Both the position numbers and the translations under genes were made by a program. 64,000 nt of DNA from Dyadobacter sp. UC 10 (GTDB lineage: Bacteria > Bacteroidota > Bacteroidia > Cytophagales > Spirosomataceae), in contig NZ_VSRN01000001.1 in assembly GCF_008369915.1 (NCBI RefSeq), forward strand, positions 1,954,001 to 2,018,000, written 5' to 3'. The notes below the pieces were generated by a model. It worked only from the letters and a program-made list of their open reading frames with translations. It made no database searches and was not told where the DNA came from. Each line of letters opens with the position of its first letter. The stretch's first letter is position 1. This document shows positions 3-46,346 of the stretch, one piece after another.

Positions 3-950
3 GTCGATTCGCAGGTAGCTGATCACTCATCGGTCGGACAGTTTCTGGAAAAACGATTCGGCGTTCAGGTGCCGGCGATCAGCCCATGGCACCGGGCGGT
101 GAGCAGCGACCTCACTTCGGCCTTCGATTTTGTTAACCCCAATGATCCGGTTTTCCCAAAACTACCCGCCACAGCCGAATATGCCAACATTGAAGCCGAA
201 TCCAAAAAGCTCCCCCCGGCAGTGGCACCTGCCACAATGATGCCGCTCTTTCAGGAAAAAGGGACAAAGTTTTCACGTGCGCTACCTTATGAGTTGCACA
301 CGCACTGCAGCATCAATAATGCTGGGAATAAGGCTAGCCTGAAATTTGAAAATACCGGAAAGGCAGGTGCCGTTTTTCATGTTTACGATTTAAAACACCT
401 CGACCGCATTCCGAAACGCTATACTGTTGAATCTGACAAATCGCTTTCAGACGACTGGGATCTTTCTGCGGACAGCGGATTATACGACCTCGAAGTATAC
501 GGCCCGAATGGTTTTTTCAGACATTTTAAAGGAAATGCGAACCAGCCGGAGCCGGAAGTGAAAGTTAGCTATGCCAGGAAAGGCGGTGTGCTTGAGTTGT
601 TGGTGGAAAACACCAACAATGGCGGGGAAAACACCAACAATGGCGGGGGAAACACCGAAAACGGCGGGGGAAACGGCATAGAAAACGCCAACAAAGGCAC
701 ACAAGCCTCTCAAAATGGCACTTTTGAAATAAGTATCCATGCAAATGCGTATCAGTATGGTGGCCCCTGGGATACAAAGTTGAATGTAAAGGCAAGTTTC
801 AGGAAAGCCTGGACATTGAAAGACAGCGGCAACTGGTACGACTTCTCCGTCAACATCAAAGGCAATACCGAATATGTGCGCCGCTTCGCTGGCCGGGTGG
901 AAACCGGGAAACCCGCGATCAGCGACCCGGCAATGGCATTGCATATTTAG
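3..950 (+). CDS. Phosphocholine-specific phospholipase C, C-terminal part (5' end outside window)
   Basis: The reading frame is open from the first bases of the window, so this is the C-terminal 315 residues of a longer protein. The segment with GVQVPAISPWHRA, then two consecutive beta-sandwich modules (LPYELHTHCSINN... and the later ANAYQYGGPW...RRFAGRVETG), is typical of the C-terminal DUF756 pair of bacterial phosphocholine-preferring phospholipase C, secreted enzymes that cleave phosphatidylcholine or sphingomyelin. The catalytic domain lies upstream and is not visible. The second module is interrupted by about 30 Asn/Gly-rich residues made of 7-residue repeats (NTNNGGE, NTNNGGG, NTENGGG), encoded by the 21-bp repeats listed separately. 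The insertion lies between two strands (LELLVEN and GTFEISIHANAY), where a surface loop is expected, so the protein may well still fold. Family assignment is from sequence recall. Confidence 0.85.
   Translation, partial: VDSQVADHSSVGQFLEKRFGVQVPAISPWHRAVSSDLTSAFDFVNPNDPVFPKLPATAEYANIEAESKKLPPAVAPATMMPLFQEKGTKFSRALPYELHTHCSINNAGNKASLKFENTGKAGAVFHVYDLKHLDRIPKRYTVESDKSLSDDWDLSADSGLYDLEVYGPNGFFRHFKGNANQPEPEVKVSYARKGGVLELLVENTNNGGENTNNGGGNTENGGGNGIENANKGTQASQNGTFEISIHANAYQYGGPWDTKLNVKASFRKAWTLKDSGNWYDFSVNIKGNTEYVRRFAGRVETGKPAISDPAMALHI
609..690 (+). repeat. 21-bp in-frame tandem repeat inside phospholipase C
   Basis: Units of 21 bp built on aacaccaacaatggcgggg run in tandem: two near-identical copies (609-629, 630-650), then two decayed ones. 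21 bp is seven codons, so the frame is kept and the protein gains an Asn/Gly-rich loop. The 16-mer aacaccaacaatggcg (609-624 and 630-645) recurs exactly at 56115-56130 in the intergenic repeat region upstream of typA. Confidence 0.85.
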
Positions 951-12481: not shown

Positions 12482-13549
12482 ATGACAGCCGACACATTAC
12501 AGATTGAGATTCAGCCGACAAGCCAGTCTCGCTTACAGGATGTTGATTTCGACAACCTGGTTTTCGGGCGGAATATTTCCGACCACATGTTTATCGCCGA
12601 ATATCGCGAAGGCCAATGGCAGGACCTTCGGATCGTCCCTTACGGCGACCTCTCGCTCAGCCCTGCTACTGCTGCCCTTCATTACGGACAAGCCATTTTT
12701 GAAGGAATGAAAGCCTACAAAAATGAAGAAGGCGAAGTGCTTTTGTTTCGTGCAATAGATAACTGGAAAAGACTCAACAAATCGGCGGAACGTCTCTGCA
12801 TGCCTTCCATCCCGGAGGAAATTTTCATGAACGGCCTGGTGGAATTGCTGCGCCTGGATGCTGGATGGGTTCCGTCACAGCCCGGCTGCTCGCTGTACAT
12901 TCGTCCGTACATGTTTGCTACTGATCCTTATATTGGCGTAAAGGCCTCTGATTCATACTATTTTATCATTTTCACCAGTCCTGTTGGCACGTACTATGCG
13001 AAGCCGCCGCGCGTGAAAGTGGAAACGCATTTTATCCGCGCCGCAGAAGGTGGGGTTGGCGGAACCAAATGCGCTGGTAATTATGCCGGTTCACTATACC
13101 CAGCCAAGCTGGCCCAGCAGGAAGGTTACGACCAGCTGATCTGGACAGACGCCCGCGAGCATGCTTACATTGAAGAATCGGGAACGATGAATATCATGTT
13201 CCTGATCGACGGAAAACTGGTTACGCCATACGTTTCCGAAACCACGCTTGACGGTATTACCAGGAAAAGCATTGTGGCGATCGCTCAGAAGTGGGGCATA
13301 CCTGTGGAAGAGCGCAGGGTAAGTGTAAAAGAAATTATCGACGCCGCAAAAGACGGCTCGCTGGAATCTGCTTTCGGGGCTGGTACTGCTGTGGTAATTT
13401 CTCCCTTCGCAACCATTGCCTACGAAGGAGTTGACTATACGCTTCCTGAAATCAAAGAGGATTCGTTTGTTACCAAAGTCAAAAACTATCTAACCGACCT
13501 GCGTACCGGTAAGGAAGAAGACGTGTTTGGCTGGATGCTGAAAGTTTAG
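12482..13549 (+). CDS. ilvE: Branched-chain amino acid aminotransferase
   Basis: 355 residues, full length for the class IV, eukaryote-like BCAT subgroup. PLP lysine is K196 in GGTKCAGNYAGS; other markers are LHYGQAIFEGMKAY, the substrate-loop YIRPYMFATDP, EESGTMNIMFLIDG and AFGAGTAVVISPF. It interconverts Leu/Ile/Val and their 2-oxo acids in the cytosol. It stands alone. The stop TAG (13547-13549) lies inside the first word of the mirrored repeat locus that follows. Confidence 0.96.
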   Translation: MTADTLQIEIQPTSQSRLQDVDFDNLVFGRNISDHMFIAEYREGQWQDLRIVPYGDLSLSPATAALHYGQAIFEGMKAYKNEEGEVLLFRAIDNWKRLNKSAERLCMPSIPEEIFMNGLVELLRLDAGWVPSQPGCSLYIRPYMFATDPYIGVKASDSYYFIIFTSPVGTYYAKPPRVKVETHFIRAAEGGVGGTKCAGNYAGSLYPAKLAQQEGYDQLIWTDAREHAYIEESGTMNIMFLIDGKLVTPYVSETTLDGITRKSIVAIAQKWGIPVEERRVSVKEIIDAAKDGSLESAFGAGTAVVISPFATIAYEGVDYTLPEIKEDSFVTKVKNYLTDLRTGKEEDVFGWMLKV

Positions 13550-13740
13550 AGTTTAGGAGTTCAATAAGTTTATGAGTTCGTAAGTTTAAAGTTTATGAGC
13601 AAAGAGCTCAAAGTAAGGTTCAACCGATGCTTTGAGCTCTTTTTCTTTTGCCGAAGAAACAAAAATCTCTTCCCACTCTAAACTTATTAACTCTAAACTC
13701 ATAAACTCTAAACTCATAAACTCTAAACTCCCAAACTCCC
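13544..13740. repeat. Mirrored word-repeat locus A (between ilvE and the AraC gene)
   Basis: Left arm 13544-13600 is a string of 7-8 nt words (gtttaga, gtttagga, gtttatga, gtttaaa). The right arm 13675-13740 is their reverse complement (actctaa, actcataa), including two exact 15-bp copies of actctaaactcataa. The arms can pair into a long imperfect hairpin enclosing the terminator at 13603-13644. It fills the whole gap between two convergent genes, and the arms touch both stop codons. Confidence 0.8.
13603..13644. terminator. Bidirectional terminator between ilvE and araC-type gene
   Basis: An 11-bp perfect stem, agagctcaaag (13603-13613) with ctttgagctct (13630-13640), has a 16-nt loop and is followed by ttttcttttg on the plus strand. 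Convergent genes on both sides fit a shared terminator. Confidence 0.8.
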
Positions 13741-23180: not shown

Positions 23181-23234
23181 TAGATCAAAACCGGAGTAGT
23201 TTAACGGGCCGGTAAGATAGTAGTTTTGTTGGGA

Positions 23235-23392
23235 TTAGCGGTTGGCGTTAAATATTAGCTGTTAGCCATTAGCTGTTAGCTCTTGGCTGTTAGATCTTAG
23301 CTGTTAATCGCAATCGTTCTCATGAATATTTACTAATTCAAAAGCAAAGACGCTAAAAGCCAATAGCTAACAGCAAAGGCCAACAGCTCATT
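23235..23392. repeat. Mirrored word-repeat locus B (between MocR and receptor genes)
   Basis: Left arm 23235-23310 is made of heptamers based on ttagctg (ttagcca, ttagctc, ttggctg, ttaatcg). The right arm 23352-23392 carries the complementary words (agccaat, agctaac, gccaac, agctcat). The spacer is about 40 bp. It lies upstream of both divergent genes, so it is not acting simply as a terminator. No clear promoter match is visible around it. Confidence 0.75.
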
Positions 23393-40500: not shown

Positions 40501-41523
40501 ATGTCACTCCTCAAGGCCGCTATCATCGGCGGCGGGCACATTGCCGACCAAAACCATATTCCCGCATTAAAAGCGCTCAGCGACCGGGTCAAAATCATTT
40601 CAATATGCAGCCGGGTTAAAGAAAAAGCCCGCGCGCTGGCAGACAAGCACCAGGTTCCTTTCGCCTTTGATAACGCTGCCGAGATGTATGCAGGCGAAGG
40701 CAAGCCGGATATGGTGGTGATATGCACAGCCAATAACCTGCATTATCCTTTTGCAATGCAGGCACTCGAAAATGATTGTCACGTATTCTGCGAAAAGCCG
40801 CCGGCCATAACCGCCGCAGAAGCCAGCGAAATGGCAGAACTTGCCAGGCAAAAAGGTAAGATCATTGCCTACAACCTCCAATTGCGTCAAACTCCCGAAT
40901 TCTCATTTATCAAAAAATGTCGCGAAGAGGGAGCATTAGGTAAAATCTATCATATCAAAGCCAATTACCTGCGGCGGCGCGGGATCCCGGGCTGGGGAAA
41001 TTTTACGAACAAATCCATACAGGGAGGCGGCGCATTGATGGACCTGGGTGTGCATATCCTCGATCTGGCGCTGGAAATGCTGGACTACCAAATGCCCGAC
41101 AGGATTGTGGCCAATACCTACGATTTTATCGGAAAAGCGGGCGGCAAAGGACTAATGGGTGAATGGAATGCGGAAAGCTTTGAAGTAGAGGATGCCTGTT
41201 TCGCGCACTTATCTTTTCCCGACAATTCCAGTATCAGCTTGTCGGCTTCCTTTGCATTGAATATGAAAGCTGAGAAAGATGTCAATCTGGAAGTTTTCGG
41301 AACAAAGGGAGGCGCCGTCTACAAGCCGCTGTCTCTATTTACCGAAATAGGAGGCGAACTGGCGGATGTTCAATTTCCACATTTGAAAGAAGAGGATATT
41401 CAGCTTAAAAATACAACCGCATTCCTGAACGCATGCGAAGGAAAACCCAGCAACATCGCAACAGGCGAACAAGGTGCCATTTTGCAGGCAGTTGTTGATC
41501 GCATTTATGAGAGTGCGGGGTAA
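40501..41523 (+). CDS. Gfo/Idh/MocA family oxidoreductase
   Basis: 340 residues. NAD-binding AAIIGGGHIADQNHIPAL at the N-terminus (Gly-rich loop GGGHIA), DMVVICTANNLHYPFAMQALE, catalytic-region HVFCEKPPAITAAEA (EKP lysine) and LMDLGVHILDLALEML. It should oxidise or reduce a sugar or cyclitol with NAD(P). No sugar operon surrounds it, so the substrate is unknown. The stop lies within a G-rich run (see repeat D). Confidence 0.92.
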   Translation: MSLLKAAIIGGGHIADQNHIPALKALSDRVKIISICSRVKEKARALADKHQVPFAFDNAAEMYAGEGKPDMVVICTANNLHYPFAMQALENDCHVFCEKPPAITAAEASEMAELARQKGKIIAYNLQLRQTPEFSFIKKCREEGALGKIYHIKANYLRRRGIPGWGNFTNKSIQGGGALMDLGVHILDLALEMLDYQMPDRIVANTYDFIGKAGGKGLMGEWNAESFEVEDACFAHLSFPDNSSISLSASFALNMKAEKDVNLEVFGTKGGAVYKPLSLFTEIGGELADVQFPHLKEEDIQLKNTTAFLNACEGKPSNIATGEQGAILQAVVDRIYESAG

Positions 41524-41541
41524 GGGAGGAAAGGGGGAGGG
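41517..41541 (+). other. Canonical G-quadruplex motif spanning the oxidoreductase stop codon
   Basis: Four G-tracts of three or more separated by TAA, AGGAAA and A (GGGG-TAA-GGG-AGGAAA-GGGGG-A-GGG) fit G3N1-7. The TAA in the first loop is the stop codon of the gene. It forms the start of the left arm of repeat locus D. Confidence 0.7.
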
Positions 41542-41660
41542 AGGAGCGGAGGAGGGAGGGAATTTTAAATATTTATACAAAAAAAGGGAGACTGGCTGAA
41601 CGGGAACAAGCCTCTACGCGGGCCGCCCTTCCTCCATTCTCCCTTTCCTCCTTACTCCTT
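41524..41660. repeat. Mirrored word-repeat locus D (purine arm / pyrimidine arm)
   Basis: Left arm 41524-41560 is all purine but one base (words gggagga, aaggggg, agggagg). The right arm 41626-41660 is five pyrimidine-rich heptamers in register (cccttcc, tccattc, tcccttt, cctcctt, actcctt). The arms are reverse complements in style, with about 65 bp between them. It occupies the gap between the convergent oxidoreductase and exbD genes and may act as their shared terminator; no classical hairpin-plus-U-tract is seen. Confidence 0.78.
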
Positions 41661-41666
41661 AATAAA

Positions 41667-42059
41667 TTATTTAGCCGTAGCCATCACCATTTTGATGTCA
41701 TTCTTGGCGCCTACTTCGAGGACGTCGACGAGATCCTGGACAGCTAGGTTTTTATCTACTCTCAGTACAACCGTCCGTTCTTCTACATTGGCGAAAATGC
41801 TTTGCAGTTCCGCTTCGAGGCGATCGAACGGGATTGGTTCTTTGTCAATAAAATAGCCTTTGTTTTCATCCACTGACAATGTTATCTGTTTTTTGTACAT
41901 CTGCTGCGTGGCCGAAGCTTTCGGCAGCATCAGCTTGATCACGTTCGGATTGGACATCGTTGAGATGATCAAAAAGAACAGGAGCAGGAAAAACATAATA
42001 TCGTTGAGCGAGTGCGTGAACACCTCAGGGGCAAACCGGCTCTTGCGACGTATTTTCAT
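41667..42059 (-). CDS. exbD: ExbD/TolR family biopolymer transport protein
   Basis: 130 residues: a short cytosolic head, one membrane helix about 20-37 opening with the conserved Asp (D20 in SLNDIMFFLLLFFLI), and a periplasmic TolR-like domain (ITLSVDENKGYFID, VVLRVDKNLAVQDLVDVLEVGAKNDI). It works with the upstream ExbB-type protein as a proton-driven motor for TonB or Tol. It follows exbB by 15 bp. Confidence 0.92.
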   Translation of the reverse strand: MKIRRKSRFAPEVFTHSLNDIMFFLLLFFLIISTMSNPNVIKLMLPKASATQQMYKKQITLSVDENKGYFIDKEPIPFDRLEAELQSIFANVEERTVVLRVDKNLAVQDLVDVLEVGAKNDIKMVMATAK

Positions 42060-46193: not shown

Positions 46194-46346
46194 GCTTTGA
46201 GCTATAGGCAATAGGCTTTAGGCTATATGCTCTTTTCAATATTGACTGTCGAATTACTCTATTAATCATTCCCGGCAACCATAGCCAACTCGTTGACCGG
46301 ACACATAGCTTAAAGCCTAAAGCTTACAGCCTAAAGCATAAAGCTT
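46194..46346. repeat. Mirrored word-repeat locus C (after the MbnH-like gene)
   Basis: The left arm 46194-46235 is six consecutive heptamers each starting GC (gctttga, gctatag, gcaatag, gctttag, gctatat, gctcttt). The right arm 46307-46348 is six consecutive heptamers each starting AGC (agcttaa, agcctaa, agcttac, agcctaa, agcataa, agcttct), matching the complement of the left words. A 70-bp spacer with no repeats separates them. This is the cleanest example of the pattern. Confidence 0.85.

What the first reader, a model, noticed from the sequence alone, without database searches (positions are those of the whole stretch)
46194..46346. A class of mirrored heptamer-word arrays at gene ends: same architecture, different sequence at each locus
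Four intergenic loci, A (13544-13740), B (23235-23392), C (46194-46346) and D (41524-41660), share one design. The left arm is a string of degenerate 7-nt (A: 7-8 nt) words in tandem, then comes a spacer of 40-75 bp, and the right arm is a string of words that are the reverse complement of the left. The word differs: gtttaga at A, ttagctg at B, gctttag at C, gggagga at D. Locus C has six heptamers in register on each side. Since the words are unrelated, the loci are not copies of one element. The common feature is period plus mirror symmetry, which suggests a shared generating process (slippage plus hairpin-templated correction) or selection for long hairpins at operon borders. I know no named element with this definition.
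Basis: seen in the sequence. Interest (0 to 1): 0.85.

Follow-up and report, generated by a model that had tools for sequence, protein, structure and literature searches.

The report
Swappable-word hairpin arrays at gene junctions
Some gaps between genes in this Dyadobacter-type genome are filled by two facing runs of one 7- or 8-letter DNA word, and related species have such runs at several of the same places but with different words, so the runs are likely kept for the hairpin they would form and not for their spelling.

Summary
The four loci are real and belong to a genome-wide class. In 802 intergenic regions of a 1.664 Mb sample of this genome, period-7 arrays number 41 (0.0 per shuffle) and period-8 arrays 22 (0.1); periods 5, 6, 11 and 13 give none. 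The words are not private to a locus: a few dialects recur. All 25 two-arm elements face the same way, G/T-rich arm first, and they abut stop codons (19 of 22 stop sides within 20 nt). The arms share the dialect (p about 5e-5) but not word order (p 0.97) or fine composition, which speaks against hairpin-templated correction; slippage inside an arm is seen. At orthologous junctions the place persists while words change: at locus A one 15-species clade shows three dialects around a terminator-like core, with matched arms in 12 of 14 two-arm species. Best reading: slip-tolerant stems built from repeats, kept by pairing at the level of the whole array. Closest known: convergent GGGAATC heptamer pairs of Xanthomonas. 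Function is inferred; there are no RNA data.

The parts
13544..13599 (+). Locus A left arm, words GTTTAGA/GTTTATGA; overlaps the stop codon (13547-13549) of the aminotransferase gene 12482-13549
13601..13642 (.). Locus A core: AAAGAGCTCAAAG hairpin followed by a T-run; a core of this kind is also present in relatives without arms
13675..13738 (-). Locus A right arm, ACTCTAAACTCATAA array (15-nt period)
23235..23306 (+). Locus B left arm, TTAGCTG-type words, 6 nt downstream of TAGTTTTG (23221-23228), which matches the Bacteroidetes -7 promoter consensus as recalled
23352..23389 (-). Locus B right arm, AGCTAACAG-type words (below the detection threshold; read by eye)
41524..41560 (+). Locus D left arm, GGGAGGA-type words, directly after the stop codon that ends at 41523
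41626..41660 (-). Locus D right arm, TCCTCCC-type words, 6 nt from the end of the ExbD ORF 41667-42059 (-) (read by eye)
46194..46232 (+). Locus C left arm, TTTAGGC/TATAGGC-type words, 20 nt after the stop of the CCP_MauG gene (read by eye)
46233..46303 (.). Locus C spacer; the stretch 46229-46308 has no other match at E 0.01 in this genome or in 47 congeners
46304..46346 (-). Locus C right arm, AGCTTAAAGCCTAA array

Best explanation
The loci belong to a genome-wide class of paired, opposite-facing arrays of 7-8-nt words that occupy some gene junctions, and they are likely kept as slip-tolerant hairpin stems that frame a terminator or, as inferred, a promoter core. Shown: arms gain and lose whole words; the arms share a dialect but not word order; the polarity is fixed (G/T-rich arm first on either strand); two-arm elements mostly begin within 20 nt of a stop codon; and between species the place can persist while the dialect is replaced, at locus A mostly in both arms. 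Inferred: because every word in one arm can pair with every word in the other, the stem survives any unit gain, loss or shuffle, so selection acts on the arrays sharing a dialect and not on base-by-base register; the words can then drift or be swapped if both arms follow. The stem, with the core at its tip, would end, shield or insulate the transcript at the junction. How a new dialect enters, and why the G/T-rich arm always comes first, is not explained.
For: Period-7/8 excess over shuffles. Polarity: 25 of 25 two-arm elements (one, L038:6145, has an unrelated right array), and 9 of 9 two-arm groups in other loci, partly the same junctions; by my reading of the listed places (the lists are capped), all pairs within 300 bp are convergent: 12 of 12, 12 of 12, 11 of 11, 11 of 11. 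Stop anchoring of two-arm elements: median 2.5 nt, 19 of 22 stop sides within 20 nt, all 6 convergent sides within 12 nt. Dialect shared by the two arms, permutation p 5e-5 to 1.5e-4, 25 elements; my reading: 21 of 25 same dialect, 3 mixed, 1 other. Orthologous places with different words, some arms below threshold and read by eye: locus B (TTRGCT in own, G034, G028; GGGAGGA in G019, G007), locus C, and C1:2031561 (TTAGCT types in own and G034, TCGGC in G007 and G028). Locus A in 36 Dyadobacter: 5 K/K, 5 O/O, 2 S/S, 2 K/O, 2 one-armed, 20 none; at least one arm in 15 of 15 species of one clade (support 98/89) and in 1 of 21 outside it; at least 4 dialect changes among the 14 two-arm species. 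Own arms pair better than arms permuted among species (-31.9 vs -24.6 kcal/mol, p 0.011, n = 13). L132 element: same spacer (78% identity) and same left-arm word order in G033 apart from one 7-bp unit.
Against: Within the main dialect there is no covariation: real partners pair no better than swapped ones (p 0.63, n = 14), and order and composition are not shared. Mixed-dialect elements exist (L043:8014, L058:6218, L169:2696; locus A in two sister species), so pairing is not strictly needed; in one of those sisters the own arms pair worse than with other species' arms. In one search, 30 of 55 elements show a single arm above threshold, and single arms are not stop-anchored (median 49 nt, 11 of 27 within 20 nt); some are not of this class and weak partners were not tested for all. 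Divergent junctions carry elements about as often as convergent ones (8 vs 10, about 200 junctions each), which a pure terminator role does not predict. The p 0.011 ignores shared ancestry, and the word lists were chosen after seeing the sequences. If the core terminates transcription, only one arm is in a given transcript, and the stem could then form only in DNA or in read-through RNA. No expression data. The promoter core in tandem and divergent elements is inferred from locus B and one conserved spacer.
Confidence: 0.45

Rival explanations
1. Fold-back or MITE-like mobile family: each dialect is a dispersed family with word-array inverted ends, inserted as a unit, after which each arm drifts by slippage.
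For: Shared dialect of the arms; dialects recur over the genome; TTGGC words concentrate in the outer quarter of arms in the main dialect (38 of 67 against 19/80, 17/76, 12/42 towards the spacer); junctions with and without elements at orthologous sites, e.g. overlapping stop-start TAATG in L078, L080, L086 against mirrored TCGGC arrays in L077, L082, L084, L087, L090 (which state is ancestral was not determined).
Against: Spacers are not seen as copies: 27 spacers against the 1.664 Mb sample gave only hits within the octamer family and one 59-bp 76% hit; the locus C spacer is unique in 48 genomes; a second spacer matches only its own place, one orthologue and two short partial stretches in loci without such arms. 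At locus A different arms surround a retained core. No constant end sequence over all dialects. Target-site duplications were not tested systematically.
Confidence: 0.2
2. Slippage plus hairpin-templated correction: one arm is copied onto the other, and slippage multiplies the words.
For: Slippage is visible. The mosaic element at C1:2031561 has TTAGGC/TATGC words outside and TTAGCT words inside on both arms and the highest rare-word sharing. A flipped loop in L082 against L077/L084 (by eye) suggests that the arms can interact.
Against: No word-order or composition match between arms; rare-word sharing over 15 elements is not significant (p 0.16). Mixed-dialect elements.
Confidence: 0.15
3. 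The arms act singly and strand-specifically, without pairing: for example the C/A-rich arm as a Rho loading site behind the core terminator on each strand.
For: Fixed polarity in all 25 two-arm elements, mixed dialects, single arms, and arms that evolve independently.
Against: The main dialect gives AGCTAAN on the C/A strand, with few C; divergent elements sit in leaders, where such a signal would harm the gene; it does not predict a shared dialect. Rho site rules are recalled, not looked up.
Confidence: 0.1
4. Neutral filler: arrays born by slippage occupy whatever intergenic DNA is unconstrained, bounded by codons, promoters and terminators.
For: Arms run up to stop codons, promoter-like sequence or a terminator-like core; a CCGGCGTT array in G019 where sister G034 has a shorter form (by eye).
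Against: Fixed polarity and shared dialect of the two arms; arms in 15 of 15 species of the locus A clade.
Confidence: 0.1

Closest known systems
GGGAATC heptamer repeats of Xanthomonas (Rehm et al. 2015, PMC4692102; passages and sections 10 and 14 read)
   Same: Degenerate heptamer arrays, mostly intergenic, lying nearer the upstream gene; 70 and 75 cases of two repeat sites in convergent orientation, one on each strand; 83% at the same gene context in a sister species; singular or paired type usually kept.
   Different: There one G-rich word with a G-quadruplex reading; here at least five dialects in one genome, 7- and 8-nt, most without G-tracts, and replacement of the dialect at orthologous junctions.
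TAACTGA heptamer repeats of Beggiatoaceae, Cyanobacteria and some Bacteroidetes (PMC4679880; abstract and passages read)
   Same: Intergenic heptamer arrays, also in Bacteroidetes; up to 43 copies in several Bacteroidetes and Cyanobacteria.
   Different: Direct repeats, mostly just upstream of start codons in the main genome; one inverted case there; one word.
REP/BIME palindromes and GTAG/CGTC-tagged repeats (PMC3733652; search listing only)
   Same: Hairpin-forming, dispersed, intergenic (the last as recalled).
   Different: REPs are fixed 20-40 bp palindromes by that abstract; here the unit is a 7-8-nt word without its own palindrome.
Foldback transposons (recalled)
   Same: Long inverted repeats built of short tandem units around unrelated loops.
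   Different: No sibling copies or transposase shown here.
Minisatellite-bearing MITE of Porphyromonas gingivalis (PMC4596501; search listing only)
   Same: Tandem repeats combined with inverted repeats in a Bacteroidetes genome.
   Different: A defined MITE; no such unit was seen here.

Membership tests
Xanthomonas-type paired heptamer SSRs | Tandem degenerate heptamers, mostly intergenic | tested here: met
   81 intergenic arrays of 92 (93 less one run of N); period test
Xanthomonas-type paired heptamer SSRs | Convergent pairs, one array on each strand | tested here: met
   25 of 25 two-arm elements
Xanthomonas-type paired heptamer SSRs | Word GGGAATC/GGGANTN with G-tracts (G-quadruplex) | tested here: not met
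   Main dialects TTRGCYN, TGAATGAN, GTTTAGA have no G-tract; only the GGGAGGA dialect has. GGGAATC itself was not searched for.
Xanthomonas-type paired heptamer SSRs | Same gene context in sister species | tested here: met
   (few junctions; own-plus/relative-plus 3, 3, 1, 4 against own-plus/relative-minus 2, 2, 4, 1 above threshold)
TAACTGA repeats | TAACTGA word | not tested
   the word was not searched for in this genome
TAACTGA repeats | Direct repeats just upstream of start codons | tested here: not met
   inverted pairs with fixed polarity; two-arm stop side median 2.5 nt, start side 20.5 nt
MITE / foldback element | Sibling copies sharing ends and interior | tested here: not met
   (27 spacers against a quarter of the genome; two spacers in 48 genomes)
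MITE / foldback element | Target-site duplication | not tested
   edges were printed but no systematic test was made
REP/RAYT | Conserved palindromic unit with a RAYT transposase | tested here: inconclusive
   no palindromic unit seen inside the words (by eye); RAYT genes not searched
Intrinsic terminator | Stable hairpin followed by a T-run | tested here: inconclusive
   at locus A an inverted repeat was found in 34 of 36 species (in L178 it is the arms themselves, in L197 and L206 it lies far from the stop); 14 of 15 species of the arm-bearing clade have a GTTCAAAG/GCTCAAAG core, mostly followed by T's; spacers of other elements not shown to be terminators
Hairpin conserved as an RNA structure | Covariation of the two arms | tested here: inconclusive
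   dialect level yes, word level no

The most novel reading that the evidence does not exclude
A register-free stem: a hairpin whose two strands are made of one repeated word, so that pairing survives all slippage, and which therefore evolves by swapping the whole word on both sides. Covariation then acts between arrays and not between bases, and each Dyadobacter lineage rewrites the same gene junctions in its own dialect.
Probability: 0.33. Interest if true: 0.75.

Novelty: new variant of a known kind. Interest (0 to 1): 0.6.

Why it matters
If true, a structure is conserved while its sequence is replaced wholesale, which base-by-base covariation and alignment methods miss. It would explain how abundant intergenic repeats can look like junk by sequence yet stay at the same junctions, and it offers natural replicates (several dialects at one site) for testing what a long stem at a gene junction does.

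Tried and rejected
Terminator-only role: rejected as general, since divergent junctions carry elements about as often as convergent ones. Hairpin templating: register and composition tests negative. Ectopic conversion or transposition carrying the spacer: no sibling spacers found in what was searched. Telomerase-like addition to both ends of a break would explain polarity, shared word and absent register, but not the retained core at locus A; considered only. Literature: word strings, heptanucleotide plus Bacteroidetes, Dyadobacter plus tandem repeat, heptameric repeats plus inverted, three further combinations and the first search listed no description of paired multi-word arrays in Bacteroidetes; the library holds open-licence papers only, and I read titles and abstract starts except for the two papers named. 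Phylum survey: TTAGCTNTTAGCTNTTAGC in 13 of 296 Bacteroidota genomes, 12 of 140 genera, this genome and genus included, so the word recurs sporadically. Other dialects were not surveyed outside the genus. The reversed control of the TCGGC pattern is not clean: it also matches these arrays read with a following T (26 control hits in G007, 36 in G011).

Rows dropped: 7 of 55 elements left out as not 7-8-nt word arrays, and one without both neighbours; L038:6145 left out but counted; one search adds the element at C1:2031561; one run of N counted among the 93 arrays, 13 of the 14 two-arm species were used for the duplex test.

Full report
Observation. Arrays of 7- or 8-nt words face each other across a spacer. 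B lies between divergent starts, not at gene ends; A is a 7+8 array around an internal hairpin followed by a T-run; C has five to six words a side. In 802 intergenic regions of a 1.664 Mb sample of the same genome (80 stretches of 20 kb plus the window), period 7 gives 41 arrays and period 8 gives 22, against 0.0 and 0.1 per shuffle; periods 5, 6, 11 and 13 give none, 9 gives one, 4 gives 8, 10 gives 9 and 12 gives 4. 23 regions hold two or more arrays, against none in each of 10 shuffles.

A genome-wide class with few dialects. The words are not private to a locus. TTAGCTNTTAGCT occurs 194 times in the genome against 1 for the reversed control, TGAATGANTGAATGA 95 times against 0. GGGAGGA, GTTTAGA/GTTTATGA and TTAGGC types recur in the sample. 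The dialect mix differs between species: TCGGCNN triplets are 0 in this genome but 93 in G007 and 122 in G011, where TTAGCT gives 42 and 0 (the reversed TCGGC pattern also matches these arrays, so its control is not clean).

Anatomy. groups 81 intergenic arrays into 55 elements; 25 have two arms and all 25 have the G/T-rich arm first (read on either strand). One of them (L038:6145) has an unrelated right array, and one single array (L040:19166) holds a local stretch of opposite order. Two-arm elements mostly fill the junction: the stop-side distance has a median of 2.5 nt, 19 of 22 are within 20 nt, and the six convergent sides are all within 12 nt; single arms are not anchored in this way (median 49 nt, 11 of 27 within 20 nt) (7 of 55 elements left out as not word arrays, one for lack of a neighbour). 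Of the two-arm spacers, 23 are 19-133 bp long, 34% G+C, and two are 10 and 1 bp; they are unrelated to one another except in the octamer family. In the main dialect TTGGC words are commoner in the outer quarter of arms (38 of 67) than further in (19/80, 17/76, 12/42).

How the arms relate. Both arms usually share a dialect (permutation p 5e-5 to 1.5e-4, 25 elements). Yet word order in one arm does not predict the other (combined p 0.97), within the main dialect partners are no more alike than strangers (p 0.78-0.92, 15 elements), and partner duplexes are no more stable than swapped ones (p 0.63, 14 elements). Two halves of one arm are alike (p 0.005). So each arm appears to turn over by itself. 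The L132 element has an orthologue in G033 with the same left-arm order except for one exact 7-bp unit, between coding flanks that differ at many positions. G019 has a CCGGCGTT array where its sister G034 has a shorter form.

Place kept, words replaced. In 224 kb compared with four congeners (117 junctions; 54, 53, 47 and 42 resolved in G019, G034, G007, G028) own-plus/relative-plus junctions were 3, 3, 1 and 4, own-plus/relative-minus 2, 2, 4 and 1 (several with visible sub-threshold arms), own-minus/relative-plus 1, 0, 1 and 1, and neither 48, 48, 41 and 36. At B the flank is shared up to TAGTAGTTTTG and then the element is TTRGCT-type in own, G034 and G028 but GGGAGGA-type in G019 and G007 (G007 below threshold), with spacers that do not look alike. 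At C1:2031561, own and G034 carry TTAGCT types, G019 a 26-nt remnant, G007 and G028 TCGGC. At locus C, own carries TTAGGC words, G007 and G028 one TCGGC-type arm (G007 below threshold), G019 and G034 a shorter stretch without an array; congeners with another downstream gene have mirrored TCGGC arrays (L077, L082, L084, L087, L090) or an overlapping TAATG (L078, L080, L086), and the loop is flipped in L082 (by eye).

Locus A over the genus. In 36 Dyadobacter sequences an inverted repeat of terminator size is found in 34 (in L178 it is the arms themselves, in L197 and L206 it lies far from the stop); 14 of the 15 species of the arm-bearing clade have a GTTCAAAG/GCTCAAAG core. Two arms occur in 14 species: 5 K/K, 5 O/O, 2 S/S and 2 K/O; 2 have one arm and 20 none (word lists chosen after seeing the sequences). 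All 15 species of one clade (support 98/89) have at least one arm and 1 of the other 21 does; the two-arm species need at least 4 dialect changes, all 36 at least 7 changes of state. By my reading three of the four involve both arms and one only the right arm, though forks inside the nine-species group are poorly supported. Own arms form better duplexes than arms permuted among species (-31.9 against -24.6 kcal/mol, p 0.011, n = 13, not corrected for ancestry).

Reading. The data fit a stem built of repeats in which any unit can pair with any unit: order and length may drift by slippage, but the dialect of the two arms must agree for pairing. That gives shared dialect, no register and concerted replacement. 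It is array-level covariation, which I take as the best evidence for pairing, with mixed elements as tolerated intermediates. What the stem does is inferred: at locus A it frames a terminator-like core; at B it lies directly downstream of a promoter-like TAnnTTTG box (consensus recalled). Fixed polarity remains unexplained.

Known relatives. Rehm et al. 2015 (PMC4692102; passages and sections 10 and 14 read) describe GGGAATC heptamer arrays in Xanthomonas, with 70 and 75 convergent pairs, mostly intergenic, nearer the upstream gene, 83% at the same context in the sister species. This is the same kind of arrangement. What is added here is several coexisting dialects, 8-nt words, replacement of the dialect at orthologous sites, two-arm elements starting at the stop codon, and the absence of register. 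MacGregor 2015 (PMC4679880; abstract and passages read; author name recalled) reports TAACTGA direct repeats, also in some Bacteroidetes.

Noticed in passing
orthologue of window 41524-41666 in G034 (L255-L258) and G028 (L263-L266): A REP-like inverted repeat (GTCAGTCTGAGCG..AGTCGAAGAC and its complement) lies nested in the spacer of locus D in two congeners that are not sisters.
   Followed up: no
L058:6218-6313, L039:3738 onward, L066:6827-6866: Octamer (TGAATGA) elements of the own genome share an extra segment like GACCGGGTCGCCGGTGCGATGA in arms or spacer, also seen in G034 at locus A.
   Followed up: partly
L077, L082, L084 after the CCP_MauG gene: The loop between mirrored TCGGC arms is inverted in L082 relative to L077 and L084, and L078, L080, L086 have a bare stop-start overlap TAATG at the same junction (by eye).
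   Followed up: partly
own C1:1890935-1891076, orthologue in G019: An 8-nt CCGGCGTT array is present in G019 only among five genomes, with a shorter form in sister G034.
   Followed up: no
window 605-674: A 21-nt tandem repeat inside a coding sequence.
   Followed up: no
own C1:2031561-2031749: A mosaic element with TTAGGC/TATGC words in the outer half and TTAGCT words in the inner half of both arms.
   Followed up: partly
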